Assembly: GCF_017815135.1 (NCBI RefSeq)
Contig: NZ_JAGJCF010000011.1
Coordinates: 62,001 to 126,000 of the forward strand
Direction: 5' to 3'
DNA from: Jiella mangrovi
Lineage (GTDB): Bacteria; Pseudomonadota; Alphaproteobacteria; Rhizobiales; Rhizobiaceae
Length of the DNA: 64,000 nucleotides
The notes under the pieces were generated by a model. That model had not been told where the DNA came from, ran no database searches, and saw nothing but the letters and a program-made list of their open reading frames with translations. The translations under genes and the position numbers were made by a program. Shown one piece after another: positions 9,837-22,355 of this stretch; positions within the stretch are counted from its first letter, which is position 1; the number at the start of each line of letters is the position of its first letter.

Positions 9837-11147
9837 TCACCTCGCAAGGTTGCCTGCAAATGTCTCGACGCTGGCGTCTCCGCTGGCCAGGCCGCAAACG
9901 GCCTGCCACAAGGCGCTGGAGGCTTGCGCGCCGAGAAGCGTCGCGGATTTCGCCCTGAGCCGCTTCTCGATCTGAGCCGGGCCGATCGCCCCGAGGAGGT
10001 CGTGGCCGGCCGACAGCCTTGCGCCGTCGCGGGTCTCGACGATGACGCGGGACGCGGTGTCGGTAAGCGACGGGTCGGCCTCGACCTCCACACGGTCGCG
10101 AAGCGCGACGAGATCGGGCCTTCGGCACGTTCGTGCGTCGTAGACCGCGAGATCGGCCGTATCCATGCCGCAGATCGCCATGGCGGCGACAAGCCGGTAG
10201 CTGAATTTCGCCTCGAGGCCGGTTTGAGGCTCTCGCTTGTTGCAGACGGCGAACCAGCGCGGATTGGTCAAGATCGTCACGCGCTCGACCGCTTGCGGCT
10301 CCAGCCCCGCCTGCCGGATTTCGCGCAGGGCTTCCAGCATCGCATGCAGCCCGTGGCAGCAGGCATGGAACTTGTAGGAGACGCCCGGAAACACCCAGTC
10401 CCGCCCCATTTGGTCGAAGGCCTCAATCCTGTCGGAGCCGGCATGGGTCGGGCCGAAACCCTGAGCGTCCTCGAAGGCTTGCGGGTTGGAGATGACGCCA
10501 TGGCGGGCGAGAAGCGCGCAGGTGACGCCGACCTCGGCGGCAAAGCCCGCATTGAGGGGTTTTGCCATGGTCCCGAACTGACTTTTCAGGCCCGCCGCCC
10601 GAGTTGTCGCCAATCCAAGAGCGGAGGTCATGGCTCCCGCATCGAGGCCAAGGAGGCGCCCGGCCGCCGCCGTAGCGCCAAAGGCGCCGGCGGTGCCCGT
10701 CTGGTGGAAGCCGGCTTCGTAATGCGAGCGGCCGAGCCAGTCGCCGACCCGGCAGGAGAGTTCGAGACCGTGGGTCAAGGCTTCCAGAAACTCGCTGCCG
10801 GAGGCTCCCTCCGCCTCGGCGACGGCGAGTGCCGCCGAGGCGACGACGACGCTCGGATGGCCGATATGGAGGAAATGCGTGTCGTCATAGTCGAGGGCAT
10901 GGCTGGTCGCGCCATTGGCGAGCGCCGCGGCGCTTGGATGGGCCCTGCCACCGCCGAAGAGGGTGGCGCCATCGCCCGACCGCACCCCCACGGCCAAGGC
11001 CCTTGCGGCCTTCGAGACCGGTTCGTCGCGCCCGGCAAGACCCACCGTCGCCCAGTCGAAAAGCGACAGCTCGGCGAAGCGACGGGCCTCGGCGCTTGCG
11101 GGCTCCTTCGACAGGGCAAATTCCGCAAGCTCGCCGGCGAGCGACAT
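9837..11147 (-). CDS. MmgE/PrpD family protein
   Basis: 436 residues, the usual size for the PrpD/2-methylcitrate dehydratase and cis-aconitate decarboxylase fold. Recognisable segments are ATSHALDYDDTHF near 82-94, HPSVVVASAALA just after, and the VSYKFHACC-type block near 265 that ends the helical domain. The ATG at 11147 shares a base with the TGA of the upstream acyl-CoA dehydrogenase (TGATG) and has GAGGAG at suitable distance, so the two are translationally coupled. In Pseudomonas itaconate loci a PrpD-like gene also sits beside an acyl-CoA dehydrogenase. The reaction here is unknown: dehydration of a citrate-like or citramalate-like acid is the family expectation. Confidence 0.85.
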   Translation of the reverse strand: MSLAGELAEFALSKEPASAEARRFAELSLFDWATVGLAGRDEPVSKAARALAVGVRSGDGATLFGGGRAHPSAAALANGATSHALDYDDTHFLHIGHPSVVVASAALAVAEAEGASGSEFLEALTHGLELSCRVGDWLGRSHYEAGFHQTGTAGAFGATAAAGRLLGLDAGAMTSALGLATTRAAGLKSQFGTMAKPLNAGFAAEVGVTCALLARHGVISNPQAFEDAQGFGPTHAGSDRIEAFDQMGRDWVFPGVSYKFHACCHGLHAMLEALREIRQAGLEPQAVERVTILTNPRWFAVCNKREPQTGLEAKFSYRLVAAMAICGMDTADLAVYDARTCRRPDLVALRDRVEVEADPSLTDTASRVIVETRDGARLSAGHDLLGAIGPAQIEKRLRAKSATLLGAQASSALWQAVCGLASGDASVETFAGNLAR

Positions 11148-12304
11148 CAGTAGCTCCTCGGCATGCCGAGAACGTGCTCGGCGAGGTAGGAGAGGATGAG
11201 GTTGGTCGAGATCGGCGCGACCTGATAGAGCCGCGTCTCGCGGAACTTGCGCTCGACGTCGTATTCCTCGGCAAAGCCGAAGCCGCCATGGGTCTGGACG
11301 CAGGCCTCGGCCGCCTCCCAGCTGGCTTCGGCCGCCAGCATCTTCGCCATGTTCGCCTCGGCGCCGGGGTTCTCGCCGGCCTCGTAGAGCCGGATCGCCT
11401 CGTGCAGCATCAGCTCGGCGGCCCGCATGCGGGCATAGGCCTTGGCGATCGGGAACTGGATCCCCTGGTTCTGGCCGATCGGCCGGCCGAAGACGACGCG
11501 CTCCGTGGCGTAGGCGGAGGCCTTGTCGATGAACCATTTGGCGTCGCCGATACATTCGGCCGCGATTAGGATCCGCTCGGCATTCATGCCCGAGAGGATA
11601 TAGCGAAAACCCTTGCCCTCCTCGCCGATCATGTTGGCCGCCGGCACCGGCACCTCGTCGAAGAACAGCTCCGTCGTCGCGTGGTTCATCATGGTGCGGA
11701 TCGGCCGGATCGTGAGGCCGTTCTCTTTCGCCGCCACCATATCGACCAGGAAGACCGAGAGCCCTTGCGTGTTCTTCTCGACCTTGTCGAGCGGCGTCGT
11801 GCGGCAGAGAAGGATCATCAGATCGGAATGCTCCGAGCGCGAGATCCAGATCTTCTGGCCGTTGACGATGAAATCATCGCCCTCGCGCCGGGCCGTCGTG
11901 CGCAGCGAGCCGGTGTCGGTGCCGCTGGTCGGCTCGGTCACACCAAACGACTGGAGCCTCAGCGTGCCTTCGGCGATCTTGGGCAGATAGGCCTGCTTCT
12001 GCGCCTCGGAGCCGTGCCGCAAAAGCGTGCCCATCGTATACATCTGGGCATGGCAGGCGCCGGCATTGCCGCCCTGGCGGTGGATTTCCTCGAGGATCAC
12101 CGCAGCCGCCGACAGGGGCAGTCCCGAGCCGCCATATTCTTCCGGGATCAGCGCCGACAGAAAGCCGGCCTCGGTCAGCGCCTTCACGAACTCCGTCGGA
12201 TAGGCGCGTTTCTCGTCGAGCTCTCGCCAGTAGCTTCCGGGGAAATCCTGGCAGAGGCGGCCAACGGCCTCGCGGATTTCGTCGTGGGTCTCGATCGTGG
12301 TCAT
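11147..12304 (-). CDS. Acyl-CoA dehydrogenase family protein
   Basis: 385 residues with the full three-domain flavoprotein layout. TEPTSGTDTG near 124-133 and the IWISRSEHSD strand are the FAD and substrate motifs, and QTHGGFGFAEEY near 341-352 is the C-terminal FAD-binding loop. The first gene of a two-gene operon with MmgE/PrpD. A LysR-type dyad lies 76 bases before its start. In itaconate or mesaconate loci an acyl-CoA dehydrogenase of this type is conserved but its substrate is not settled; methylsuccinyl-CoA or a similar C5 thioester would fit. Confidence 0.88.
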   Translation of the reverse strand: MTTIETHDEIREAVGRLCQDFPGSYWRELDEKRAYPTEFVKALTEAGFLSALIPEEYGGSGLPLSAAAVILEEIHRQGGNAGACHAQMYTMGTLLRHGSEAQKQAYLPKIAEGTLRLQSFGVTEPTSGTDTGSLRTTARREGDDFIVNGQKIWISRSEHSDLMILLCRTTPLDKVEKNTQGLSVFLVDMVAAKENGLTIRPIRTMMNHATTELFFDEVPVPAANMIGEEGKGFRYILSGMNAERILIAAECIGDAKWFIDKASAYATERVVFGRPIGQNQGIQFPIAKAYARMRAAELMLHEAIRLYEAGENPGAEANMAKMLAAEASWEAAEACVQTHGGFGFAEEYDVERKFRETRLYQVAPISTNLILSYLAEHVLGMPRSY

Positions 12305-12379
12305 GGCTGTCTCCCGTGCTTTGGCGTCTTTGTACCGGTCCAGATCCGATCGAAGCAGGGCGCGAATTGAATGCAGCCC

Positions 12380-12394
12380 ATAGACCTGCGCTAT
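12380..12394. promoter_or_regulatory. LysR-type dyad, site 1 (upstream of acyl-CoA dehydrogenase)
   Basis: ATAGACCTGCGCTAT: ATAG and CTAT are perfect inverse arms around seven bases, extended by one further pair on each side. It fits the AT-N11-AT form of LysR-family boxes. It lies 76-90 bases upstream of the minus-strand start at 12304. Three other copies of the same dyad lie at the other promoters of this locus. Confidence 0.6.
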
Positions 12395-12403
12395 GGCTCG
12401 CCT

Positions 12404-13900
12404 TTACGCGCTCTTGCGCCAGAGCTTCGGCCCGCTTTCGTGGATGGAGTTGCCCCTGGTGTCGACGGCGAGCGTCACCGGCATGTCTTCGACCCTCAAA
12501 CGATAGATCGCCTCCATGCCGAGGTCCTGCCAGGCGACGGGTTCGGCCTCGCGGATCGCCTTGGAGACGAGGAACGCCGCGCCGCCGACGGCGATCATGT
12601 AGACGGCGCCGTGATCGGCGATGGCGGAGATCGCCTCCGGCCCGCGCTCGGCCTTGCCGATCATCACCTTCAGGCCGGTTTCGGCCAGCACCTGTCGGGT
12701 GAACTTGTCCAAGCGGGTCGAGGTCGTGGGTCCGGCCGGGCCGATCACCTCGTCGCCGACGGGATCGACCGGCCCGACATAGTAGATCGCCCGTCCCTTC
12801 AGATCGACGGGCAGGCTCTCGCCCTTGTCCAGCGTTTCCACCATGCGTTTGTGGGCGGCATCGCGGCCGGTATAGAGCGTGCCGGAAAGAAGCAGCGTCT
12901 CGCCGGGGGTGAGCGCCGCCAGCGTCGTCTCGTCGAGCGCGTCGAGGTCGATCCGCTTCACCGAGGCGCTGGAATTGTCGAGAACGATCTCCGGCCAGAG
13001 CGAAAGATCCGGCGGATCGAAGGTCGCGGCCCCCGATCCGTCGAGGACGAAATGGACGTGGCGGGTGGCCGCGCAATTGGGGATCAGCGCGACCGGCAGC
13101 GACGCGGCGTGGGTCGGGAAATGCCGGAGCTTGACGTCGAGCACCGTGGTCAGGCCGCCGAGGCCCTGGGCGCCGATGCCGAGCGCGTTGACGCGCTCGT
13201 AGATTTCCAGCCGCAGTTCCTCGGCGCGGTCGCGCGGGCCCCGCTCCAGAAGATCGAAGATGTCGATCGGATCGTTCAGCGACATCTTGGCGAGCGCCAT
13301 CGCCTTGTCGACGCTGCCGCCGACGCCGATGCCGAGCATGCCCGGCGGGCACCAGCCGGCGCCGAGGCCGGAGACGGTCTCGACCACCCAGTCGGCGACC
13401 GAGGCCGACGGATTGAGGACGGCGAACTTCGTCTTGTTCTCCGAGCCGCCGCCCTTGGCCGAGACGACGACGTCAACCGTGTCGCCCGCCACCATCTCGA
13501 CATGGACCATGCCGGGGGCGTTGTCGCCGGTGTTCCTGCGATCGCCGAACGGATCGCGGACCACCGAGGCGCGCAAGGGATTGGTGTCGAGACGATAGGC
13601 CCGGCGCACCGCCTCGTCGACGATCTCCTGCAGCGGCCGCCTCCAGCCGATTTTCGCCTCGCAGCCGATCTTGAAGAAGACGTTGGCGACGCCGGTATCC
13701 TGGCAGATCGGACGCTGGCCCATGGCGCACATGCGCGAGTTGGTCAGAATCTGACCGATGGCGTTCTTCGCGCCCGGCGACTGTTCGCGCTCATAGGCCG
13801 TCGTCATCGCCCGGATGAAATCCTCCGGGTGGTAACAGGCGACGAATTGCAGCGCGTCGGCGATGCTGTCGACGACATGGTCTTCGGTGATCGCAGCCAT
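12404..13900 (-). CDS. Class I (iron-sulfur) fumarate hydratase family; possible mesaconase
   Basis: 498 residues. ICQDTG at 65-70, GWCPPGMLGIGVGG at 182-195 and IPNCAATRH at 273-281 contain Cys66, Cys184 and Cys276, the probable ligands of the [4Fe-4S] cluster. The C-terminal domain begins around residue 330 and holds GTLYTGRDAAHKR, typical of the beta part. Class I fumarases hydrate fumarate to malate, and some members hydrate mesaconate to citramalate. Being set among citramalyl-CoA-type genes, divergent from the lyase gene and near a LysR-type dyad, the mesaconase alternative is attractive. Sequence alone does not separate the two activities. Confidence 0.88.
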   Translation of the reverse strand: MAAITEDHVVDSIADALQFVACYHPEDFIRAMTTAYEREQSPGAKNAIGQILTNSRMCAMGQRPICQDTGVANVFFKIGCEAKIGWRRPLQEIVDEAVRRAYRLDTNPLRASVVRDPFGDRRNTGDNAPGMVHVEMVAGDTVDVVVSAKGGGSENKTKFAVLNPSASVADWVVETVSGLGAGWCPPGMLGIGVGGSVDKAMALAKMSLNDPIDIFDLLERGPRDRAEELRLEIYERVNALGIGAQGLGGLTTVLDVKLRHFPTHAASLPVALIPNCAATRHVHFVLDGSGAATFDPPDLSLWPEIVLDNSSASVKRIDLDALDETTLAALTPGETLLLSGTLYTGRDAAHKRMVETLDKGESLPVDLKGRAIYYVGPVDPVGDEVIGPAGPTTSTRLDKFTRQVLAETGLKVMIGKAERGPEAISAIADHGAVYMIAVGGAAFLVSKAIREAEPVAWQDLGMEAIYRLRVEDMPVTLAVDTRGNSIHESGPKLWRKSA

Positions 13901-14075
13901 GAAACCTCCCTGACTTCGGCAACCCTCGGCGGCAATGGCACGCGGCGAGCCCTGCGTTCAGACTGGAATGGTTCTTACTCCCCAGACCGCGACAGGCAAA
14001 GACGGCGCCCATAGGCCTTGCCTCGAGCAGGCTTCCACTTGCGCGACGAACACCGGCAAAAATTGCCCTGAAACG

Positions 14076-14090
14076 ATAGGTTGGGTCTAT
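14076..14090. promoter_or_regulatory. LysR-type dyad, site 2 (between fumarase and lyase genes)
   Basis: ATAGGTTGGGTCTAT, with perfect ATAG/CTAT arms extended by a G-C pair on the outside. It is in the 308-bp divergent promoter region 13901-14208, 119 bases before the lyase start and 176 bases before the fumarase start. Nothing else was recognised in this region. Confidence 0.6.
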
Positions 14091-14208
14091 CCATCCCATC
14101 CTGCGACAACGCATTTCGATCGTCCCGGCGCTTCGCTATGAGGATTGTTGTCAAAGACCGGTCGTTCTTTCGCGACCAGATCTCAGCCAGACCCCGGAGG
14201 GCCCCGCC

Positions 14209-14997
14209 ATGAGAGACCTTGCCGCCGCCCGCAGCTTCCTCTTCGTGCCCGCGACACGGCCCGAGCGGATCGAAAAGGCCAAGGCCAGCGGCGCCGACGC
14301 CGTCATCGTCGATCTCGAGGACGCCGTTGCGCCGCAGGAAAAGGCCGCGGCACGCGAGACGCTGCAAGCGGCGCTCGTAGAGGACGCTGGCATTCTTCTG
14401 CGCATCAACGCCGCCGGCACGAAGTGGCACGACGAGGACCTGGCCCTTCTCGCCCATCCCGGCATCTCCGGCGTCGTGCTGGCCAAGGCCGAGCGCGCCG
14501 AAGACATCGAAAAACTGGGCAAACCGGTCGTCGCGCTGATCGAGACGGCGCGCGGCCTTGCCAATGCGCGGCCGATCGCGGCGGCCAGAGGAACCCGCCG
14601 TCTCGCCTTCGGCACGATCGACTTCATGGCCGATCTCGGCCTGCCCGAGGACGGCGCGGCGATGGCGATCTACCGTGCCGAACTCGCCCTCGCCTCCCGC
14701 CTCGCCGGCATCGGGCCGCCGATCGACGGGGTCACGACCGCGATCGACGACGACGCGCTGATCGCAGAGGAAACCCGCCGGGCGCTCGCCTTCGGCTTCG
14801 GGGCGAGACTCGCCATTCACCCGAGGCAGATCGGCCCGATCCACGACGCGCTCCGCCCCACCGACGCCGAGATCGCCCGCGCCCGGCGGATCGTCGAGGC
14901 GGCAGAGACGTCCGATGGCGGCGCCATCCGTCTCGACGGGGCGATGGTCGACGCTCCTGTGGTGTTGCAGGCCCGCGCGGTTCTGGCCCGGGCCTGA
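14209..14997 (+). CDS. HpcH/HpaI (CitE-like) lyase, probable citramalyl-CoA lyase
   Basis: 262 residues. SFLFVPATRPER at 9-20, VDLEDAV at 34-40, LRIN with Arg66 at 64-67, ALIETARG with Glu112 at 109-116, and FGTIDFMADLG are the signature blocks of CitE-like acyl-CoA lyases; Arg66, Glu112 and the Asp in FMAD bind magnesium and the acid. Members split malyl-, citramalyl- or beta-methylmalyl-CoA. With a CaiB-type CoA-transferase and a FAS1-like hydratase nearby, (S)-citramalyl-CoA cleavage to acetyl-CoA and pyruvate is the best guess. It converges on the hydratase gene with 14 bases between stops. Confidence 0.85.
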   Translation: MRDLAAARSFLFVPATRPERIEKAKASGADAVIVDLEDAVAPQEKAAARETLQAALVEDAGILLRINAAGTKWHDEDLALLAHPGISGVVLAKAERAEDIEKLGKPVVALIETARGLANARPIAAARGTRRLAFGTIDFMADLGLPEDGAAMAIYRAELALASRLAGIGPPIDGVTTAIDDDALIAEETRRALAFGFGARLAIHPRQIGPIHDALRPTDAEIARARRIVEAAETSDGGAIRLDGAMVDAPVVLQARAVLARA

Positions 14998-15011
14998 GAC
15001 TTTCGCCGGAA

Positions 15012-15845
15012 TCAGCCGAGCGTCAGCGTCGCCTTCATCGAGGTCACGCGGTCGGAGCGTTCGACCCGGCCTTCCCGGCTCGCCCCTTCGGTCTCGAAAC
15101 CGAGGCGGATGGGCGTCGTGTCGAACACCGGTGCGAGCGCCCGATAGGCAAAGCGAAGCGGCTGTCCTGTCGCGATCCCGGCACTTTCGATCATCGTGTC
15201 GCAGAGCTTCGTCGCCATCAGGGGCCCGTGCACGACGAGGCCCGGATAGCCCTCGACCTTTCGGCAGAAATCACGATCCCAGTGGATGCGGTGACCGTTG
15301 TGGGTCAGGGCCGAATAGAAGAACAGCTCCATGTCCGGATGGACGACATAGCCGTCCGGCACGGGGTCGTCCGCCTCGCGCAATGCTGCATCGGGCAGAC
15401 CGCGATCACGATAGACGACGGTCTGGATCTCGTCGATGGCGGTCTCGCCGCCTTGCGAAATCCTGTGTTCGACCGTGACGAAGCAGAGATCGCCGGTCTT
15501 GCCCGTCTTGAAGTTGACGGCGGTGATCGTCGATCTGCGCGTCGCGGCAACGCCGAGCTGCAACGGCCGCCGAACCGTCACGTCGCCCGCCGCCCACATG
15601 CGCCGGTGAAACGGCGCCGGCGGCAGGAAGAGGCCGAGCTTTTCGTGGCCGTCCTCTCCCGCATCGACGATCGGATAGCCGTGGTTGAAATAGGCCCAGT
15701 GCCATGTCGGCGGCAGCCCTTCCTCTGGCACAGACCGCCGAAGCAGTGTCGCGAGCTTCGTCGCCGTTTCAGGCGCCATCTCGTCGGTGACGGAGCGCTC
15801 GCGGCCGACATAGGCCTCGCATTCGGCCTTGATTGCGGCGTCCAT
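15012..15845 (-). CDS. FAS1-like dehydratase (MaoC-like), itaconyl-CoA/mesaconyl-C4-CoA hydratase type
   Basis: 277 residues with two hot-dog halves. The N-terminal half contains FLPPAPFHRRMWAAGD (73-88). The second half contains YSALTHNGHRIHWD (177-190), the catalytic H-N-x-H-x-I-H-x-D block of hydratase 2 enzymes, then YPGLVVHGPL. This exact arrangement is found in mesaconyl-C4-CoA hydratase and in the itaconyl-CoA hydratase of Pseudomonas. It adds water to give citramalyl-CoA. Its stop lies 14 bases from that of the lyase gene; its start overlaps the stop of the SDR by one base, so it follows that gene in one operon. Confidence 0.85.
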   Translation of the reverse strand: MDAAIKAECEAYVGRERSVTDEMAPETATKLATLLRRSVPEEGLPPTWHWAYFNHGYPIVDAGEDGHEKLGLFLPPAPFHRRMWAAGDVTVRRPLQLGVAATRRSTITAVNFKTGKTGDLCFVTVEHRISQGGETAIDEIQTVVYRDRGLPDAALREADDPVPDGYVVHPDMELFFYSALTHNGHRIHWDRDFCRKVEGYPGLVVHGPLMATKLCDTMIESAGIATGQPLRFAYRALAPVFDTTPIRLGFETEGASREGRVERSDRVTSMKATLTLG

Positions 15846-16594
15846 CAGATCGTCCGCCCGCCGTCGACTTCGAGGATGACGCCGGTCAGGTACTCCGCTT
15901 CGTCACTGGCGAGGAACGCCGCAGCATTCGCGACGTCGCGGGGCTCCGACAGGCGGCCGAGCGGGATCGTCGCGATGAAGCGCTCGCGATTTTCCGGCGT
16001 GTCGGGCATGCCCATGAAGTTCTCCAGCAGCGCCGTCGCGCCCATCACCGGCGCAAGGCCGCAGACGCGGATCCTGTCCGGCGCAAGTTCGACCGCGAGC
16101 GAGCGGGTCATCAGGTTGGCCGCGCCCTTGGAGGAGTTGTACCACGTCAGCCCCGGACGCGGGCGAATGCCGGCGGTGGAGCCGACATTGATCATGACGC
16201 CGCCGCCGGAAGCACGCCAGCGGGGAACGATCGCCTTGGTCATGTGGAAGATCGACATGACGTTGACGTCATAGAGTTTCCTCATCGTCGCTTCGTCGGT
16301 CTCCATCAACGGAGCATTCTTGTTCGACCAGCCGGCATTGTTGACGATCACGTCGACGCCGCCGAACTCAGCCTCCATCTTCGCGATCGCCGTCTCGATC
16401 TGTTCTGCGCTGGTGACGTCGCAGGTGATGGCGACCGCGCCTTTGCCGATTTTTGACGCGACAGTCTTGGCGCCCTCGCCGTTCATGTCGACGACGGCGA
16501 CCTTTGCGCCTTCCGCCATGAACTTTTCGGCAATGCCCCTGCCGAAGCCGGAGGCAGCGCCCGTGACGAGACAGCGTTTTCCTTCGAGCCGCAT
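15845..16594 (-). CDS. SDR family oxidoreductase
   Basis: 249 residues. TGAASGFGRG at 11-20 is the cofactor motif, NNAG around 89-92, and YNSSKG carries the active-site Tyr and Lys. The C-terminus EVDGG fits classical SDRs. GGAGG five bases upstream fixes the start at 16594. The gene sits between a 50-codon reading frame and the hydratase gene and shares a base with the latter. It may interconvert a hydroxy acid or its CoA ester in the C5-dicarboxylate pathway; no SDR is required for the known itaconate route, so its role is open. Confidence 0.82.
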   Translation of the reverse strand: MRLEGKRCLVTGAASGFGRGIAEKFMAEGAKVAVVDMNGEGAKTVASKIGKGAVAITCDVTSAEQIETAIAKMEAEFGGVDVIVNNAGWSNKNAPLMETDEATMRKLYDVNVMSIFHMTKAIVPRWRASGGGVMINVGSTAGIRPRPGLTWYNSSKGAANLMTRSLAVELAPDRIRVCGLAPVMGATALLENFMGMPDTPENRERFIATIPLGRLSEPRDVANAAAFLASDEAEYLTGVILEVDGGRTI

Positions 16595-16604
16595 GACGAC
16601 CTCC

Positions 16605-16757
16605 TTATCCGTGATTGTGGACGATCGTCTTGATCGTCGAGACTTCGAGCAGGGCCTCGAAGCCGACCTCCAGCTCGGCCGGCTTGTCACCATTCTGAGG
16701 CCCGGGCGGCATCGCTTGGGCGGCGAAGAGCGCGGCGCGATTACGGTGTCCTGCCAT
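16605..16757 (-). CDS. Small hypothetical protein heading the SDR-hydratase operon
   Basis: 50 residues beginning MAGHRNRAALFAAQ and ending STIKTIVHNHG. GGGAGGAAATTCGAC precedes the ATG, giving a good ribosome site, and the TAA at 16607-16605 abuts the GGAGG of the next gene, so spacing is as in a true operon member. No known domain was recognised and there is no signal peptide or membrane segment. It might be a real small protein, a leader, or the remnant of a larger gene; codon use is ordinary for the window. Confidence 0.45.
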   Translation of the reverse strand: MAGHRNRAALFAAQAMPPGPQNGDKPAELEVGFEALLEVSTIKTIVHNHG

Positions 16758-16885
16758 GTCGAATTTCCTCCCATCACAAGGATCACCCCTGCCCGCAGCC
16801 CTTCCTCCCAGGGCCGCGGGACGATACTGGCGGAGCCTACAGAGCGGGGCGGACCTTGAGAAATAGCGATTTTGGACCCGCGCCC

Positions 16886-16900
16886 ATAGATCAGGCTTAT
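16886..16900. promoter_or_regulatory. LysR-type dyad, site 3 (upstream of the SDR-hydratase operon)
   Basis: ATAGATCAGGCTTAT matches the other sites except that the right arm is TTAT instead of CTAT. It lies 129 bases upstream of the minus-strand small gene at 16757, in the space between that gene and the broken cyclase gene. Confidence 0.5.
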
Positions 16901-16904
16901 TGCT

Positions 16905-17131
16905 TCAGCGAATGGCGATCGGATTGATGATCATCTGCACGGCGCCGCGCAGCCGCGCCTGACCCAGCACGCAGAAACATTCGTTCACGTCATCCGCCGG
17001 GAGTTCGCGGGTTTCCATGTTTTCCAGGATGTCGATGCCGTGCTCGGGCTGAAGAATCGGGTGGACCTTCAAGGCCGCCCCTCTTCCTCGGCCGGAACCA
17101 CCTCCATGCCGCAGATATCGGCACCCGAAGC
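16905..17131 (-). pseudogene. Cyclase (kynurenine-formamidase-like) family gene remnant, frameshifted
   Basis: On the minus strand one frame reads GASVGASGADICG and MEVVPAEEEGRP and then stops at 17069. A second frame continues KVHPILQPEHGIDILEN and ends GQARLRGAVQMIINPIAIR. Together they match the last 70 or so residues of cyclase-family proteins (COG1878), where the GRP segment runs directly into KVHP. A single missing base at about 17071-17072 explains the break. No N-terminal part is present; upstream sequence is the end of the LysR gene. So this is a truncated and frameshifted remnant. Confidence 0.72.
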
Positions 17132-17196
17132 GCCAACACTGGCGCCACGGATGCACCGTCGGGAACATGTCCAACAGGCCGGGCGGCAGGTCCACT

Positions 17197-18147
17197 TTAG
17201 TCTTCGGTTTGCCCGGTCGGAAACTCCGCCTGCCAGATGCCGCGTCCCACGAGATCCTCGATCACCTGCCGGCAATAGGTCTCGATCGCCCGGGTCGCGG
17301 CGGTGGCGCGGGACTTGCCGGAGCGCACCAGATAGACCGGCCGGCGCATGCACGGCTCGATGATCTGGCTGCCGAGAAGCCAGCCCATCTCGACATGATC
17401 GTGGACCGCCGCCGGCGACAGGATGGTGTGGCCGCTGCCGCGGGCGACGAGCGCCTTGATCTGCTGCAGGGAGTCCATCTCAGTGACGACCCGTGGCTCC
17501 AGCCGCGCGGCCTTGGCCACGCGGTCGATCAGCGTCCTGAGGCCATGGCGGCGCGAGGGCAAAACGAGATCGAGGCGCATCACGTCGCGAAGCGCCACCG
17601 GCTCTCCCGGCGGCGTCTCGAACGGCCAGTCGTCCGGGGCGGCGTAGAACCACAGATCCTCCATCAGGATCAGTTCCGAGGTGCAGTCGCCGATGCCCTC
17701 CTGGTCGTAGAGAAGCGCCAGATCGATGTCGCCGGACTTCACCCACTCCTTGATATGGCCGCTCATCGCCTCGGTGGCGCAGAAATGCACCCTCGGCATC
17801 TCGACCCGAACGGTCTCGGCAAGCGGGATCGACAGCGCCATCGAGACGGAGGCCGGCAGGCCGAAATCGACGCGGCCGGACGGTTCGGAGGAGATCGCGC
17901 GCACATCCTCTTCCGCTTGCCGCAGGAGTTCGGCGATCCGGCAGGCATGTACGTAGAGGAGCTGGCCAGCCTCGGTCGGCGAGACACCGCGGGCGGTGCG
18001 GGTCAGGAGTTCCGAGCCGAGACGCTCTTCGAGATTGCGCGTCTGCTGGGAGAGCGAGGGCTGGGCGACGCCCAGCGCCCGCGCCGCCGCGCTCATCGAA
18101 CCGCTTTCGACGATCTGGCGGAAATAGGCGAGCTGGCGCGAATCCAT
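17197..18147 (-). CDS. LysR family transcriptional regulator, RipR-like by position
   Basis: 316 residues. The N-terminal winged helix covers about 1-60 (LAYFRQIVESGSMSAAARALG, helix-turn-helix SMSAAARALGVAQPSLSQQ in two parts), followed by the type 2 periplasmic-binding effector domain to the end. It is transcribed away from the CaiB-type CoA-transferase gene; the 107-base spacer contains one of four matching AT-N11-AT dyads. It is the only regulator gene in 9837-19394 and thus the probable controller of the whole locus, with an itaconate-like acid or its CoA ester as possible inducer. The effector is inferred from context only. Confidence 0.85.
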   Translation of the reverse strand: MDSRQLAYFRQIVESGSMSAAARALGVAQPSLSQQTRNLEERLGSELLTRTARGVSPTEAGQLLYVHACRIAELLRQAEEDVRAISSEPSGRVDFGLPASVSMALSIPLAETVRVEMPRVHFCATEAMSGHIKEWVKSGDIDLALLYDQEGIGDCTSELILMEDLWFYAAPDDWPFETPPGEPVALRDVMRLDLVLPSRRHGLRTLIDRVAKAARLEPRVVTEMDSLQQIKALVARGSGHTILSPAAVHDHVEMGWLLGSQIIEPCMRRPVYLVRSGKSRATAATRAIETYCRQVIEDLVGRGIWQAEFPTGQTED

Positions 18148-18162
18148 GGATACTCCGCGGAG

Positions 18163-18177
18163 ATAGGGTCTTCCTAT
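18163..18177. promoter_or_regulatory. LysR-type dyad, site 4 (between LysR and CoA-transferase genes)
   Basis: ATAGGGTCTTCCTAT: five-base perfect arms ATAGG/CCTAT around five bases. It lies 16 bases from the LysR start and 78 bases from the CoA-transferase start, the usual place for a LysR autoregulatory and activation site. Confidence 0.65.
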
Positions 18178-18254
18178 TGGTAGATGCCGCGAAAGCTATT
18201 TGTACAGGCCCCGTCGCATTCGGCATCTTCGCGGCGAATGCGAGAGGATGTCTG

Positions 18255-19394
18255 ATGCAGGATCTGAGCGGTCTGACCGTGGTTTCGGTCGAGCATGCGG
18301 TGGCGGCGCCCTATGCGTCGGTGAAGCTTGCCGATGCGGGGGCGAGGGTCATCAAGGTGGAGCGGCCGGAGGGGGATTTCGCCCGCGGCTACGACAAGCT
18401 CGCGGCGGGCAACAGCGCCTATTTCGTCTGGCTCAATCGCGGCAAGGAATCGATCGCCCTCGATCTGAAGGACGCGGCCGACAAGGCGGTCCTCGCCAGG
18501 CTGATCGACGAAGCCGACATCCTGATCCAGAATCTCGGGCCGGGTGTCATGGAGCGGCTCGGCTTCGGCGTCGACGACCTATGCAAAAGCCATCCGAAGC
18601 TGATCGCCTGCTCGATCTCGGGCTACGGTTCGGAAGGCCCGCGCGCCTCGCAGAAGGCCTACGACCTCCTCATTCAGGCCGAAAGCGGCCTGTCGGCGAT
18701 CAACGGCACGCCGGAAGGGCCGGCCCGCGTCGGCGTTTCCGTCTGCGACATCGCCGCCGGCATGACCGCCTATCAGGCGATCCTCGAGGCCTTGATCGGC
18801 CGGGCGACGACCGGCAAGGGCCGCCATGTCGAGGTTTCGCTCTATCACGCCATGGCCGACTGGATGAACGTGCCGTATCTCCAGTATCGCTATGGCGGCA
18901 AGGCGGCGCAGCGCCAGGGACTGCAGCATCCGACCATCGCGCCCTATGGCGCCTTTCCATGCGCCGACGGCAAGGTGCTGCTCATCTCGGTCCAGAACGA
19001 CCGGGAATGGGCTCAGCTCTGCAAGGCACTGGGGGCGCCCGAGATGGCGACGAAAGAGGGCTTTGCCACGAACCACGAGCGGATGGCCAACCGTCCGGCG
19101 GTCGACGGCTTCGTCGGCGGAAGACTGGCGGAGCGGGGCCGCGAGGAAAACATCGACCTTCTCACCAAAGCCCGGATCGCCATCGGCCGGCTGTCCGACA
19201 TGGAGGACGTCGTTCAGCATCCGCAGAACCGCTTCGTCGAGGTGCCTACGCAACACGGCCCGCTCGAACTCCTCGCCCCCGGCGCGACCGTGCGCGGAAG
19301 AAAGATCGAGGCCTTCGGGCGGGTGCCGGAAACAGACGAACATGGCGCATCGATCCGCGCCGAATTCGGCTTTGCGGCGAAGCACTCGACCTAG
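18255..19394 (+). CDS. CaiB/BaiF CoA-transferase (class III), probable itaconate/mesaconate CoA-transferase
   Basis: 379 residues, standard length. VVSVEHAVAAPYASVKLAD (9-27) and VIKVERPEGD (32-41) are the nucleotide/CoA-fold segments. Asp165 in SVCDIAAGM aligns with the catalytic aspartate of formyl-CoA transferase, which carries the acyl group as an anhydride. GKGRHVEVSLY follows as in the family. In Pseudomonas the homologous gene moves CoA from succinyl-CoA to itaconate. GAGAGGA precedes the ATG at 18255. It is divergent from the LysR gene and monocistronic as far as seen, converging on the amidohydrolase gene. Confidence 0.85.
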   Translation: MQDLSGLTVVSVEHAVAAPYASVKLADAGARVIKVERPEGDFARGYDKLAAGNSAYFVWLNRGKESIALDLKDAADKAVLARLIDEADILIQNLGPGVMERLGFGVDDLCKSHPKLIACSISGYGSEGPRASQKAYDLLIQAESGLSAINGTPEGPARVGVSVCDIAAGMTAYQAILEALIGRATTGKGRHVEVSLYHAMADWMNVPYLQYRYGGKAAQRQGLQHPTIAPYGAFPCADGKVLLISVQNDREWAQLCKALGAPEMATKEGFATNHERMANRPAVDGFVGGRLAERGREENIDLLTKARIAIGRLSDMEDVVQHPQNRFVEVPTQHGPLELLAPGATVRGRKIEAFGRVPETDEHGASIRAEFGFAAKHST

Positions 19395-19451: not shown

Positions 19452-20699
19452 TTATAAGGCTTCGCCGCCCATTTCGCTGCCGAAGAGTTGCGGCAAGGGG
19501 CGCTCGAAGGTCTGGCGACCGGCCTTCCAGCCGGCAATCGGCTGGGCGATGCGGCGCACGGCATCCGTGGCGCTCGCAGCGTCGAGGATGACGAGATCGG
19601 CCGGCGCGCCGACGGCTGGCGTCGACGGCCTGTCGAGGCCAATGACGGAGGCGGCGCTCTCGCTGACCATCGCGAAGCTTTCGGCGATCTCTTCCTCCGT
19701 CCCGATCTGGGCGATGTTGGCAAAGAGGTTCGCCATGCGGATCAGCGAGGCGTCGCCGAATGGCGTGAAGGGGTTGAGGACGTTGTTGGTGGCCACCGCC
19801 GTCCTGACGCCCGCCCGGGCCAGACGATCGGCCCTTGCCATGCCGCGCGGATTGAGCCGGTCGGCATCCCGCCCCATGAGATAAAGATCCGTCGCCGGCA
19901 GGACGACGAGGCCGATATCGGCTTCGGCAAGTTCGCTCGCCAGCTCATCGAAGCGCTCCGGCGCCATCGCCGAGAGCTTGCTGACATGGCCGATCGAAAC
20001 CCGGCCCTGAAGGCCCCTCGCCTTCACGGCGGCAATCAGCGTCGGTAGATCCGAGCCTTCGGGGTCGAGATCGAAATCGATGTGGAAATCGGCCGGCACC
20101 GCGAAGCGCTCGGCCAGATCGAGGACGAGCTCGATGTGCCGCGCCGGATCGTCGTCCGTATAGGGACAGCCACCGACGCTGGTCGCGCCGCCCTCGAGCG
20201 CCGCGATCAGGAGATCACGAGTGGCCATCTCCTGGGTCAGGCCCTCCTGCGCGAAGGCGCAGAGGTCGAGATCAATGGCATGGGCATAGTCGCGCTTCAA
20301 CTGGACAAGCGCGTCGAATGAGGTCAGCTGGACGCGCGGGTCCGTCTCGACGAAGCTCCTCATCGCCATGGTTCCGTTGACGATCGCCTGTCTGAGGACG
20401 GTCTCCGCCCGCTGGTAGACGTCTTCGCGGGTAAACTCCGCCTTGGCTTTCGCCGTCAGAGACACCGCCTCTTTAAGCGTCCCCTCACAGATCGGGCAGC
20501 GCCCGAGAATCGCGGCCTTGTCGAGATGGATGTGGGCATCGACGAAGCCGGTGCAGACGAACCGCCCGTGCACGCGGCGCTCGGCTGCGCCTTGCGGCAG
20601 TCCCGGCGCGATCTCGGCGATGCGCCCGTCCAAGATGCCGATATCGACGGGCGCGTCCCTGCCCGCGATCCGCGCCTCCCGCAAAATCAGATCCAGCAT
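19452..20699 (-). CDS. Cytosine deaminase-like amidohydrolase
   Basis: 415 residues. GFVDAHIHLDK at 51-61 gives the H-x-H pair on strand 1 of the barrel, and FHIDFDLDPEG near 205 plus SIGHVSKLS near 236 give the next histidines. In CodA-type enzymes the strand-8 metal Asp lies in a G-[HS]-D-[DN] motif before P-[WF]-x-P; here that segment reads ATNNVLNPFTPFGD, so Asn stands where Asp is expected. The protein is likely a metal-dependent hydrolase of a nitrogen ring or amide, but not necessarily cytosine. It is the last gene of the ABC-racemase-GNAT operon, 19 bases after the GNAT gene. Confidence 0.82.
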   Translation of the reverse strand: MLDLILREARIAGRDAPVDIGILDGRIAEIAPGLPQGAAERRVHGRFVCTGFVDAHIHLDKAAILGRCPICEGTLKEAVSLTAKAKAEFTREDVYQRAETVLRQAIVNGTMAMRSFVETDPRVQLTSFDALVQLKRDYAHAIDLDLCAFAQEGLTQEMATRDLLIAALEGGATSVGGCPYTDDDPARHIELVLDLAERFAVPADFHIDFDLDPEGSDLPTLIAAVKARGLQGRVSIGHVSKLSAMAPERFDELASELAEADIGLVVLPATDLYLMGRDADRLNPRGMARADRLARAGVRTAVATNNVLNPFTPFGDASLIRMANLFANIAQIGTEEEIAESFAMVSESAASVIGLDRPSTPAVGAPADLVILDAASATDAVRRIAQPIAGWKAGRQTFERPLPQLFGSEMGGEAL

Positions 20700-20718
20700 G
20701 CCCGCTATTCTCCGCCTG

Positions 20719-21588
20719 TCAGCCGAGTTCGAAGCTGGTAACGCCGAAGATCCTGTCGAGGGGGAGCGACGGAGGGTCGCCCTTCACCATCCGCGCGGTC
20801 TCGAAGACCTCGACCATGCCGCGGCCTTCGGCAAGCGCGATGGCGGCTTTATTCGGCTCGGGAACGTCGAGGATCACTGCCTCGCCGGGCGGCACCATGC
20901 GCGACAGGGCGTCGAACAGGCTCGATGCGGCATCCGGCGTCTCGGCGAAGAGCGGACCGACCTTGAACCCATCCTGCGCCGGACGAACGACGCCATAGCC
21001 CCTCACCGTGTCGCCCTCGCCGGGCAGTATCCTGGCGACGTGCCCGTCCGCAAACAGCCAGGCGCGAAGGAAGGCCTCACGCTCGGTCCCGAAATGGGCC
21101 GTGTCGTAGGAAACGAGAGCGGCGCCGTCCTCGGCCGTGACCGCCCGCGTCGCGTCCGGCACCTCGGCCGCTAGTGAAACCGGGCCCTTGAAGCGGATGT
21201 TGCGATGCTGGAGGACGAAGCCGGATCGGGCATAGTTCGCCTGCTGATCGACGACGCCGTCGAGACCGACCGAGCGGCCTTCGAGCCGCGCCATGCCGGC
21301 CTGCCAGAGCGCCCAACCGATGCCCCGGCCGCGCAGCTCCGGCCTGACGATGTAAAAGCCGAGAAAGCCCTGTGTCTCGCCATAGGCGACGACCGAGATC
21401 GCGGCCGCCGGCTCGCCAGCCAGAAATGCCATCAGGAAGCCCTCGGGATCGGCGCTCCGGAACGCCTGCGCATCGCCGAGACCGGGATTCCAGCCCTCCT
21501 TCGCGGCCCATTCGACCGCCAGCTCGACATCGGCCGGCGTCATCACGCGGATTTCGATATCGGACGCTCGCGTGGCGATGCCCGTCAT
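20719..21588 (-). CDS. GNAT family N-acetyltransferase with C-terminal Acetyltransf_18-like domain
   Basis: 289 residues. The N-terminal GNAT domain (10-140) holds FYIVRPELRGRGIGWALW, with the R/Q-x-x-G-x-G/A acetyl-CoA motif RGRGIG. The second half (about 150-285) resembles the C-terminal domain found in YitH-like proteins. The start at 21588 overlaps the racemase stop by ATGA, so translation is coupled. Its substrate is unknown; acetylation of an amine or amino acid released by the neighbouring enzymes, or detoxification of it, would fit the operon. Confidence 0.8.
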   Translation of the reverse strand: MTGIATRASDIEIRVMTPADVELAVEWAAKEGWNPGLGDAQAFRSADPEGFLMAFLAGEPAAAISVVAYGETQGFLGFYIVRPELRGRGIGWALWQAGMARLEGRSVGLDGVVDQQANYARSGFVLQHRNIRFKGPVSLAAEVPDATRAVTAEDGAALVSYDTAHFGTEREAFLRAWLFADGHVARILPGEGDTVRGYGVVRPAQDGFKVGPLFAETPDAASSLFDALSRMVPPGEAVILDVPEPNKAAIALAEGRGMVEVFETARMVKGDPPSLPLDRIFGVTSFELG

Positions 21589-22355
21589 TCGACGGGCTCG
21601 AGAACGGGTGCGCTCTCGGTGTAGCCGATCATCCCGTCCGGATAGACGAAGCCCTGGTCCTTCGGGCGGGGCGTCGCATAGCCGCCGCGCTTGACGGTCT
21701 TCAGACCGAGCGTCACGGCGGCCTCCATCAGTTTCACCGCCGCCGAAACGCCTTCGACCACCGGAACCCCGTGGCGCTCGGAAAGGCTCGCGGCAAAGTC
21801 GGCCATGCCAGCGCAGCCGAGCACGATCGCCTCGGCGCCGTCCTCGTCGATCGCCCGGGCGATCTCTTCGGAGATTTTGGCGTTCGCCGCCTCCGGATCG
21901 GCCTCGAGAGCCAGGACCGGCAGCTCCGATGCGCGGACGCTGGCACAAAGGCTCGAAAGGCCGGCGCGGGACAGATTGTCTTCGAGGATCGGTACGGAGA
22001 CCGACAGCGTCGTGATCACCGAATATCGCCTTGCCACCAGCGTCGCCATGCGCGCCGCCGCTTCGCCGATGCCGATCACCGGGCCCTTGAGGATAGAACG
22101 GGCGGCTTCGAGGCCGGTATCGTCGAAACAGGCGATGATATGGGCGTCGGCTCCATCGCGTTCGGCGATCGCGAGGGCATGGAGAAGCCCCGGCACGGCG
22201 AGCGCGCCGTCGACATGGCCCTCGATCGAGATCGGGCCGGCGTCGTTCTGATAGGCAAGGATTTCAGTGCCCCGCGCCGCCGCCTGGCGCGCCGCGTGGG
22301 CGATCGTCTCGGTCATCGACCGGGTGGAGTTCGGATTGACGATTGAGATCCGCAA
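21585..22355 (-). CDS. Aspartate/glutamate/hydantoin racemase family protein
   Basis: 256 residues. The start MRISIVNPNSTRSMT is typical of hydantoin racemases. The two catalytic cysteines are in IACFDDTGL near residue 75 and VLGCAGM near residue 186, as in the Asp/Glu racemase superfamily. The C-terminal segment KTVKRGGYATPRPK is also characteristic of the hydantoin-racemase branch. The neighbouring amidohydrolase could then act on the racemised ring. The gene follows a 168-bp gap after the second permease gene and overlaps the GNAT gene. Confidence 0.85.
   Translation of the reverse strand: MRISIVNPNSTRSMTETIAHAARQAAARGTEILAYQNDAGPISIEGHVDGALAVPGLLHALAIAERDGADAHIIACFDDTGLEAARSILKGPVIGIGEAAARMATLVARRYSVITTLSVSVPILEDNLSRAGLSSLCASVRASELPVLALEADPEAANAKISEEIARAIDEDGAEAIVLGCAGMADFAASLSERHGVPVVEGVSAAVKLMEAAVTLGLKTVKRGGYATPRPKDQGFVYPDGMIGYTESAPVLEPVE

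What the first reader, a model, noticed from the sequence alone, without database searches (positions are those of the whole stretch)
12380..18177. Four matching 15-bp LysR-type dyads, one at each promoter of an itaconate-like locus
ATAGACCTGCGCTAT (12380), ATAGGTTGGGTCTAT (14076), ATAGATCAGGCTTAT (16886) and ATAGGGTCTTCCTAT (18163) share ATAG-N7-(C/T)TAT, the AT-N11-AT form of LysR boxes. They are in the four regulatory gaps of the set 9837-19394: before acyl-CoA dehydrogenase/MmgE, between fumarase and lyase, before the small gene/SDR/hydratase, and between LysR and CoA-transferase. A single LysR protein at 17197-18147 is the only regulator. This defines a probable five-transcript regulon directly from sequence.
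Basis: partly seen in the sequence, partly recalled or inferred. Interest (0 to 1): 0.78.

Follow-up and report, generated by a model that had tools for sequence, protein, structure and literature searches.

The report
LysR operator sites in methylsuccinate/itaconate locus
A bacterium related to Jiella carries four matching DNA control sites in front of a set of genes for breaking down small branched acids, and the same sites recur beside the same regulator gene in related species, so they are very probably where that regulator binds; this is a well-supported but ordinary kind of gene control.

Summary
The four dyads are at the stated coordinates and beyond chance: the only ATAG-N7-YTAT places in 64 kb and 4 of 18 in the 4.93-Mb genome. 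Of 13 foreign loci around LysR orthologues, 11 hold 27 such sites, placed at matching promoters; one lies inside an unrelated gene, and 2 loci hold none. Among 5376 palindromic dyads ATAG-N7-CTAT has the largest enrichment (27 seen, 0.15 expected). Acyl-CoA dehydrogenase promoters carry it in 6 of 6 loci whose cluster has the LysR orthologue, and in 2 of 24 others. The LysR-operator reading is supported; binding and ligand are unproven. Corrections and additions: gene content matches the published itaconate/methylsuccinate cluster (PMC12290011, PMC9875883); there are six transcripts counting lysR; the "small gene" is a deletion scar behind the former operator of a missing transporter-aldehyde dehydrogenase operon; a second half-site, CTATTTG, lies 22 bp downstream at the CoA-transferase promoter. 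ATAG-N7-CTAT is also published for OxyR, and BhbR1's site is similar, so the motif alone does not identify the regulator. New member of a known kind.

The parts
9837..11153 (-). MmgE/PrpD family protein; candidate (S)-(R)-methylsuccinate isomerase
   Evidence: Pfam MmgE_PrpD_N and _C; prpD equivalog far below cut-off; candidate catalytic residues located by motif
11147..12304 (-). Acyl-CoA dehydrogenase; candidate methylsuccinyl-CoA dehydrogenase
   Evidence: Pfam; neighbour of MmgE as in PMC12290011; 79-96% identical in 7 of the 13 foreign loci
12380..12394 (.). Dyad 1, before ACAD-MmgE; centre 83 bp from the ACAD start
   Evidence: 7 of 8 ACAD promoters have the centre at 80-86 bp
12404..13900 (-). 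Class I fumarase-type hydratase; candidate mesaconase
   Evidence: Pfam Fumerase and Fumerase_C; mesaconase role by analogy only
14076..14090 (.). Dyad 2, between fumarase and lyase
   Evidence: dyads lie 118-164 bp (centre) before the mapped lyase start in the 5 foreign loci listed, start codons uncertain
14209..14997 (+). HpcH/HpaI (CitE-like) lyase; candidate citramalyl-CoA lyase
   Evidence: Pfam; RipC 152.6 bits against cut-off 375; best PDB chains named acyl-CoA lyase beta chain
15012..15845 (-). MaoC/FAS1-type hydratase; candidate itaconyl/mesaconyl-CoA hydratase
   Evidence: The two PDB hits include 8khg, named itaconyl-CoA hydratase, 167 bits
15845..16594 (-). Short-chain dehydrogenase
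   Evidence: Pfam
16605..16757 (-). Deletion-scar ORF: start of a transporter binding-protein gene joined to the 3' end of an aldehyde dehydrogenase gene
   Evidence: DNA alignment to L053 breaks at window 16659-16664 (L053 12263 then 18272); residues 30-50 match the aldehyde dehydrogenase end at 90%, residues 1-37 match weakly (E 0.56) as protein
16860..16866 (-). Half-site CTATTTC, 23 bp (CTAT to CTAT) from dyad 3
16886..16900 (.). Dyad 3 (weakest), before the scar ORF, SDR and hydratase
   Evidence: counterpart L053:12008
16905..17195 (-). ORF that holds the 3' remnant of a cyclase-family gene
   Evidence: Aligns to the end of the L053 cyclase gene; no Pfam match of its own
17197..18147 (-). 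LysR-type regulator, the proposed binder
   Evidence: Pfam HTH_1 and LysR_substrate; orthologues listed
18163..18177 (.). Dyad 4, between lysR and the CoA-transferase; centre 23 bp from the lysR start and 85 bp from ATG 18255
18196..18202 (+). Half-site CTATTTG, 22 bp (CTAT to CTAT) from dyad 4; proposed activation site
18255..19394 (+). CoA-transferase family III; candidate itaconate/methylsuccinate CoA-transferase
   Evidence: Pfam CoA_transf_3; mesaconate CoA-transferase model 213 bits against cut-off 700

Best explanation
The four dyads are the main operator sites (T-N11-A 'recognition binding sites') of the LysR protein at 17197-18147. A LysR tetramer would hold one dimer on the 15-bp dyad. 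At the CoA-transferase and SDR promoters its second dimer would sit on a half-site (CTATTTG/CTATTTC) about two helical turns downstream, near the promoter; when a pathway acid binds, this contact would shift and activate transcription. The dyad 23 bp before the lysR start would give autoregulation. The controlled genes are the CoA-transferase, acyl-CoA dehydrogenase + MmgE, lyase, SDR + hydratase and perhaps fumarase, which by gene content would turn methylsuccinate-, itaconate- or mesaconate-type C5 acids into acetyl-CoA and pyruvate. Shown: the sites, their rarity, their conservation, their dependence on the LysR orthologue, and the spaced half-site. Inferred: binding, tetramer geometry, activation, and the ligand.
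For: 4 of the genome's 18 ATAG-N7-YTAT places lie here. 27 sites in 11 of 13 foreign loci, at matching promoters. ATAG-N7-CTAT has the highest fold enrichment of 5376 palindromic dyads over 14 loci, 27 against 0.15. A matrix from 26 foreign sites ranks the four window sites 1, 2, 4 and 5 in 64 kb. In eight CoA-transferase promoters the dyad arms (7.75 and 8.00 of 8) and the half-site (7.71) are conserved against 4.2-5.1 elsewhere. ACAD promoters: 6 of 6 with the LysR orthologue in the cluster, 2 of 24 without, Fisher p 5e-5. In L051, where the CoA-transferase has been replaced beside lysR, the dyad stays and the half-site has decayed.
Against: No binding or expression data. L061, L062 and L078 (45-51% LysR) have no such site. 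In G213 and G151 (64% LysR) the ACAD copy lies in another cluster without the dyad. Dyads 1 and 2 lack the half-site. The motif is shared with OxyR and resembles BhbR1's site. By Poisson score over all 14 loci a GC-rich word pair ranks above the dyad. A matrix from one promoter class alone ranked dyad 3 only 20th and left dyad 1 outside the 25 listed.
Confidence: 0.83

Rival explanations
1. The dyads are OxyR sites: a hydrogen-peroxide regulator encoded elsewhere controls this locus, and the local LysR does not bind them.
For: ATAG-N7-CTAT is reported for the oxyR-oxyS region (PMC5002191 passages), and the 22-bp spacing fits the tandem OxyR arrangement (spacing recalled).
Against: The sites follow the presence of the local lysR orthologue, recur at each of several promoters of the same cluster, and one sits in the lysR promoter in most of these loci. 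In the window none has the full OxyR tandem of two dyads.
Confidence: 0.05
2. The LysR binds the dyad in its own promoter, but one or more of the other three (above all 16886) are relics without present function.
For: 16886 is the weakest site and lies in a region reshaped by deletion.
Against: 16886 keeps a half-site 23 bp away as in L053, and its positional counterpart is conserved there; 12380 and 14076 have counterparts in several loci.
Confidence: 0.1
3. Chance similarity in the AT-richer gaps of a GC-rich genome, picked after the fact.
For: The pattern was chosen by eye; 14 single places occur elsewhere and one foreign site lies inside an unrelated gene.
Against: Recurrence in related genomes, the untargeted dyad enrichment and the invariant arms.
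Confidence: 0.01

Closest known systems
OxyR operator (ATAG-N7-CTAT repeats; PMC5002191, passages)
   Same: Same 15-bp core dyad, and a CTAT 22 bp further on at the CoA-transferase promoter (OxyR spacing recalled)
   Different: One dyad with at most one extra half-site in the window; tied to a different LysR gene and a catabolic locus
BhbR1 site of Pigmentiphaga (ATA-N9-TAT, footprinted; PMC12016517, passages)
   Same: 15-bp ATA-N9-TAT; the protected stretch holds ATAGCAAACCGTTAT, which fits ATAG-N7-YTAT
   Different: Other pathway (3-bromo-4-hydroxybenzoate); proteins not compared
Itaconate/methylsuccinate cluster of Pseudomonas and Cupriavidus (PMC12290011, PMC9875883)
   Same: The five gene kinds ict, ich, ccl, mcd and mmgE all have counterparts here
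   Different: Extra fumarase and SDR; genes in several transcripts; no pathway-specific equivalog cut-off passed
ItcR of Yersinia (PMC11275114, passages)
   Same: LysR-type regulator divergent from C5-acid catabolic genes
   Different: Described there as a repressor relieved by itaconate; sequence and operator not compared here
NAC (PRK11233) LysR regulator
   Same: Best NCBIfam model for this LysR; ATA-N9-TAT box recalled for NAC
   Different: 188 bits against cut-off 309, so not a member by that model; catabolic-cluster context

Membership tests
LysR-type regulator with its own operator (RBS/ABS) | LysR HTH and substrate-binding domains | tested here: met
   Pfam PF00126 and PF03466
LysR-type regulator with its own operator (RBS/ABS) | T-N11-A dyad in the regulator's own promoter, conserved in orthologues | tested here: met
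   Window, L049-L054, L056, L058 and L060; not in L057, L059, L061 or L062
LysR-type regulator with its own operator (RBS/ABS) | Second half-site on the same helix face towards the gene | tested here: inconclusive
   Present at the CoA-transferase and SDR promoters, absent at the ACAD and lyase promoters
LysR-type regulator with its own operator (RBS/ABS) | Protein binds the dyad and responds to a ligand | not testable with these tools
   Needs EMSA or footprint
Itaconate/methylsuccinate degradation cluster | CoA-transferase, hydratase, lyase, ACAD and MmgE genes together | tested here: met
   definition from PMC12290011
Itaconate/methylsuccinate degradation cluster | Enzymes pass specific family cut-offs | tested here: not met
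   RipC 152.6/375; mesaconate CoA-transferase 213/700; prpD 35/458. No methylsuccinate-specific model was seen among the hits
Methylsuccinate isomerase (MmgE/PrpD) | His88, Glu91, His102, His152, Lys202, Lys266 and Tyr148 (P. aeruginosa numbering, PMC12290011) | tested here: inconclusive
   Same residue kinds in order at close spacing (H85, D88 for Glu, H99, Y145, H150, K198, K261), placed by motif; no alignment to a proven isomerase was made
OxyR regulon | Full tandem ATAG-N7-CTAT-N7-ATAG-N7-CTAT (recalled) | tested here: not met
   Each window gap has one dyad; dyads 3 and 4 have one extra half-site
NAC | PRK11233 equivalog cut-off | tested here: not met
   188.1 bits against 309

The most novel reading that the evidence does not exclude
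A dispersed LysR regulon that kept its operators while its genes were rearranged. A fumarase gene sits between two operators that in relatives share one lyase/ACAD gap. A deletion of about 6 kb removed ABC-transporter and aldehyde dehydrogenase genes and put SDR-hydratase behind the surviving transporter operator. The regulator's wider family shares an ATA-N9-TAT core whose flanking preference moved between CTATA...TATAG-like and ATAGG...CCTAT-like forms.
Probability: 0.5. Interest if true: 0.42.

Novelty: new member of a known kind. Interest (0 to 1): 0.33.

Why it matters
It gives a testable operator (ATAGG-N5-CCTAT-like, with CTATTTG 22 bp on) and regulon for a regulator of itaconate/methylsuccinate-type catabolism in Alphaproteobacteria. 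In my searches of the open library I saw no operator described for such a cluster (listings and a few papers' passages only; subscription papers on ItcR are not covered). It could serve as a promoter-regulator pair for sensing C5 dicarboxylic acids.

Tried and rejected
NAC membership: best-scoring family model but well below its cut-off.

An extended regulon elsewhere in the genome: the 14 other ATAG-N7-YTAT places were read by eye as 3-kb loci, three clusters of them were fetched and ten ORFs annotated. A pair on contig 23 lies near a TRAP transporter and another LysR gene, not followed further. I recognised no pathway genes; I treat these as background or other regulators' sites, without proof.

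A matrix built from nine orthologous CoA-transferase/lysR-gap sites ranked 18163 and 14076 first and second but 16886 only 20th, and 12380 was not among the 25 listed. A matrix from 26 foreign sites of several promoters ranked the four 1, 2, 4 and 5; its training sites were chosen by the pattern itself, and I left out the one inside the decarboxylase gene.

The first untargeted dyad ranking used 12 loci and left out L061 and L062, which have no site; there the dyad ranked first (27 against 0.35). Repeated with all 14 loci it is second by Poisson score behind GCCG-N4-CGGC (177 against 49) and first by fold enrichment. I read the GC-rich pairs, at 3-4 fold, as codon-phase effects; not tested.

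ATAGG-N5-CCTAT with one mismatch gave 35 places in the genome, against 31 for the backward control: no power.

The composite dyad + half-site pattern over 297 family genomes gave 23 hits against 16 backward-control hits (my count from the table), so it does not mark this LysR by itself. 13 of the 23 hit loci have a LysR-like tblastn match within about 1.5 kb, which suggests a shared LysR-family architecture.

In G213 and G151 the ACAD copy lies in another cluster with ATA-N9-TAT but no ATAG-N7-YTAT sites; they were not among the 30 loci (of 104 genomes with a match).

A class-wide LysR search found matches at E<=1e-70 in 3 of 385 genomes, the window's own included. Structure prediction was not used.
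Full report
WHAT IS THERE. Between 9837 and 19394 lie MmgE/PrpD, acyl-CoA dehydrogenase (ACAD), a class I fumarase-type hydratase, HpcH/HpaI lyase, MaoC/FAS1-type hydratase, SDR, LysR and CoA-transferase III. The four dyads are at the stated coordinates and are the only ATAG-N7-YTAT places in 64 kb. The genome has 18 distinct places, 14 elsewhere.

MORE THAN CHANCE. At the genome background (14 in about 4.92 Mb) the 5.8-kb stretch should hold about 0.017 sites; four has Poisson probability about 3e-9 (my arithmetic). The pattern was chosen after seeing the sites, so the independent test is orthology. Of 13 foreign loci of about 20 kb around LysR orthologues (45-92% identical), 11 hold 27 ATAG-N7-YTAT sites and 2 (L061, L062) hold none. 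No site lies within a mapped pathway gene, except that in L057 and L059 it overlaps the lysR stop codon by 4 bases; one (L056:13891) lies inside an Orn/Lys decarboxylase gene. No gene caller was run, so starts and some gaps rest on homology and on the ORFs I annotated. Over all 14 loci, of 5376 palindromic 4+4 dyads with gaps 0-20, ATAG-N7-CTAT has the highest fold enrichment (27 seen, 0.15 expected) and the second Poisson score, behind one GC-rich pair at 3.6 fold; an earlier run without L061 and L062 had it first.

CONSTRAINT RATHER THAN SHARED DESCENT ALONE. In eight CoA-transferase/lysR promoters aligned without gaps on the dyad, the two arms average 7.75 and 8.00 identical of 8, against 4.21 in the 5' flank, 4.86 in the centre, 5.06 in the linker and 4.36 further on. 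A second block, CTATTTG, starts 19 nt after the dyad (22 bp from CTAT to CTAT) and averages 7.71 of 8. Among five more distant promoters the invariant columns are dyad positions 1-3 and 11-15, the block at 36-40, and two single columns, 17 and 66. Similar half-sites recur at other promoters: CTATTTC at 23 bp for window 16886 and L053:12008, and CTATTGG at 22 bp in L057 and L059. Palleronia L079 has two ATA-N9-TAT sites 22 bp apart in one divergent gap. The 8 ACAD and 6 lyase rows examined, and L054:10982, lack CTATT at that distance.

NATURAL CONTROLS. ACAD homologues are common in the family: 104 of 297 genomes at E<=1e-150. Of the 30 ACAD loci held, all 6 whose cluster has the LysR orthologue (64-100%) carry the dyad within 300 bp upstream, against 2 of the other 24 (Fisher p 5e-5). 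Of those two, G133 has a 32% LysR-like match within 1.5 kb and G274 a 43% LysR homologue about 5 kb away. Two further genomes with a 64% LysR, G213 and G151, keep ACAD in another cluster without the dyad. In Aurantimonas L051 the gene divergent from lysR is not the CoA-transferase but another LysR gene, and L052 looks alike in sequence; the dyad remains and the CTATTTG block has decayed. The two species are close, so this counts as one event.

REARRANGEMENTS. In L049, L051 and L052 lyase and ACAD are divergent with two dyads in the gap; in the window a fumarase lies between the two dyads. L053 (Jiella pelagia) has, after lysR, a cyclase gene (its frame seems interrupted near the 3' end: homology runs on in a second frame), a dyad, ABC transporter genes, an aldehyde dehydrogenase, then SDR and hydratase. 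Aligned to L053, the window shows two breaks: 17222/17125, where most of the cyclase is missing, and 16659-16664, where L053 12263 is followed by 18272, about 6.0 kb missing. Which state is older was not tested by a tree; deletion is inferred from the partial ends of two genes.

MECHANISM. I infer an ordinary LysR scheme: dyad as recognition site, half-site as activation site at two promoters, and autoregulation from the dyad 23 bp before the lysR start. The dyad centre lies 84-97 bp before the start in the eight CoA-transferase promoters and 80-86 bp at 7 of 8 ACAD promoters (120 in L054). By gene content this is the itaconate/methylsuccinate cluster of PMC12290011 (abstract, two sections and passages read) and PMC9875883 (passages), where the ACAD is methylsuccinyl-CoA dehydrogenase and the MmgE protein is methylsuccinate isomerase. 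The hydratase has two solved-structure hits, one named itaconyl-CoA hydratase. No enzyme here passes a pathway-specific equivalog cut-off, so the substrate remains inference. ItcR, the itaconate LysR regulator of Yersinia, is a functional parallel (PMC11275114 passages); its sequence was not compared.

SPECIFICITY. ATAG-N7-CTAT is reported for OxyR (PMC5002191 passages), and BhbR1 binds an ATA-N9-TAT site (PMC12016517 passages). In 19 remote homologues (38-43%) the top 3-bp dyad upstream of lysR is ATA-N9-TAT, 8 of 19 loci against 0.62 expected, with flanks such as CTATAACGAACGGATATAG in some; with 4-bp arms no such dyad stands out. So the core is common to many LysR proteins, and position beside this lysR, not the motif alone, assigns the sites. 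Of nine homologues at 44-51% for which wider stretches were held, L060, L079, L080, L081, L139 and L140 have at least one such site (one in L081 lies inside lysR) and L061, L062 and L078 have none.

VERDICT. Observation confirmed; interpretation supported with corrections; a new member of a known kind.

Noticed in passing
   Followed up: yes
window 16905-17195: 3' remnant of a cyclase-family gene after lysR; the L053 copy is longer but its frame also looks interrupted.
   Followed up: partly
window 19452-22355: Next to the locus lie a cytosine deaminase-like amidohydrolase (below cut-off) and an ORF that looks by eye like an Asp/hydantoin racemase; probably a separate operon, with no ATAG-N7-YTAT dyad.
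   Followed up: no
L008 (G000 contig 14, 29137-29151): An ATAG-N7-CTAT dyad between a LysR-like gene (27%) and what looks by eye like a formate dehydrogenase operon: a candidate operator of another LysR.
   Followed up: no
L072 (G000 contig 23, 3359 and 5495): Two ATAG-N7-YTAT places 2.1 kb apart near a TRAP transporter (DctM) and a LysR gene.
   Followed up: partly
L101, L102, L105, L086 (family genomes): Composite hits with near-identical tandem elements close to a LysR-like gene; possibly OxyR operators.
   Followed up: no
L137 7471-7558 and L138 2830-2910: Pairs of ATA-N9-TAT sites 66-73 bp apart upstream of ACAD in clusters without the dyad; perhaps operators of a related LysR.
   Followed up: no
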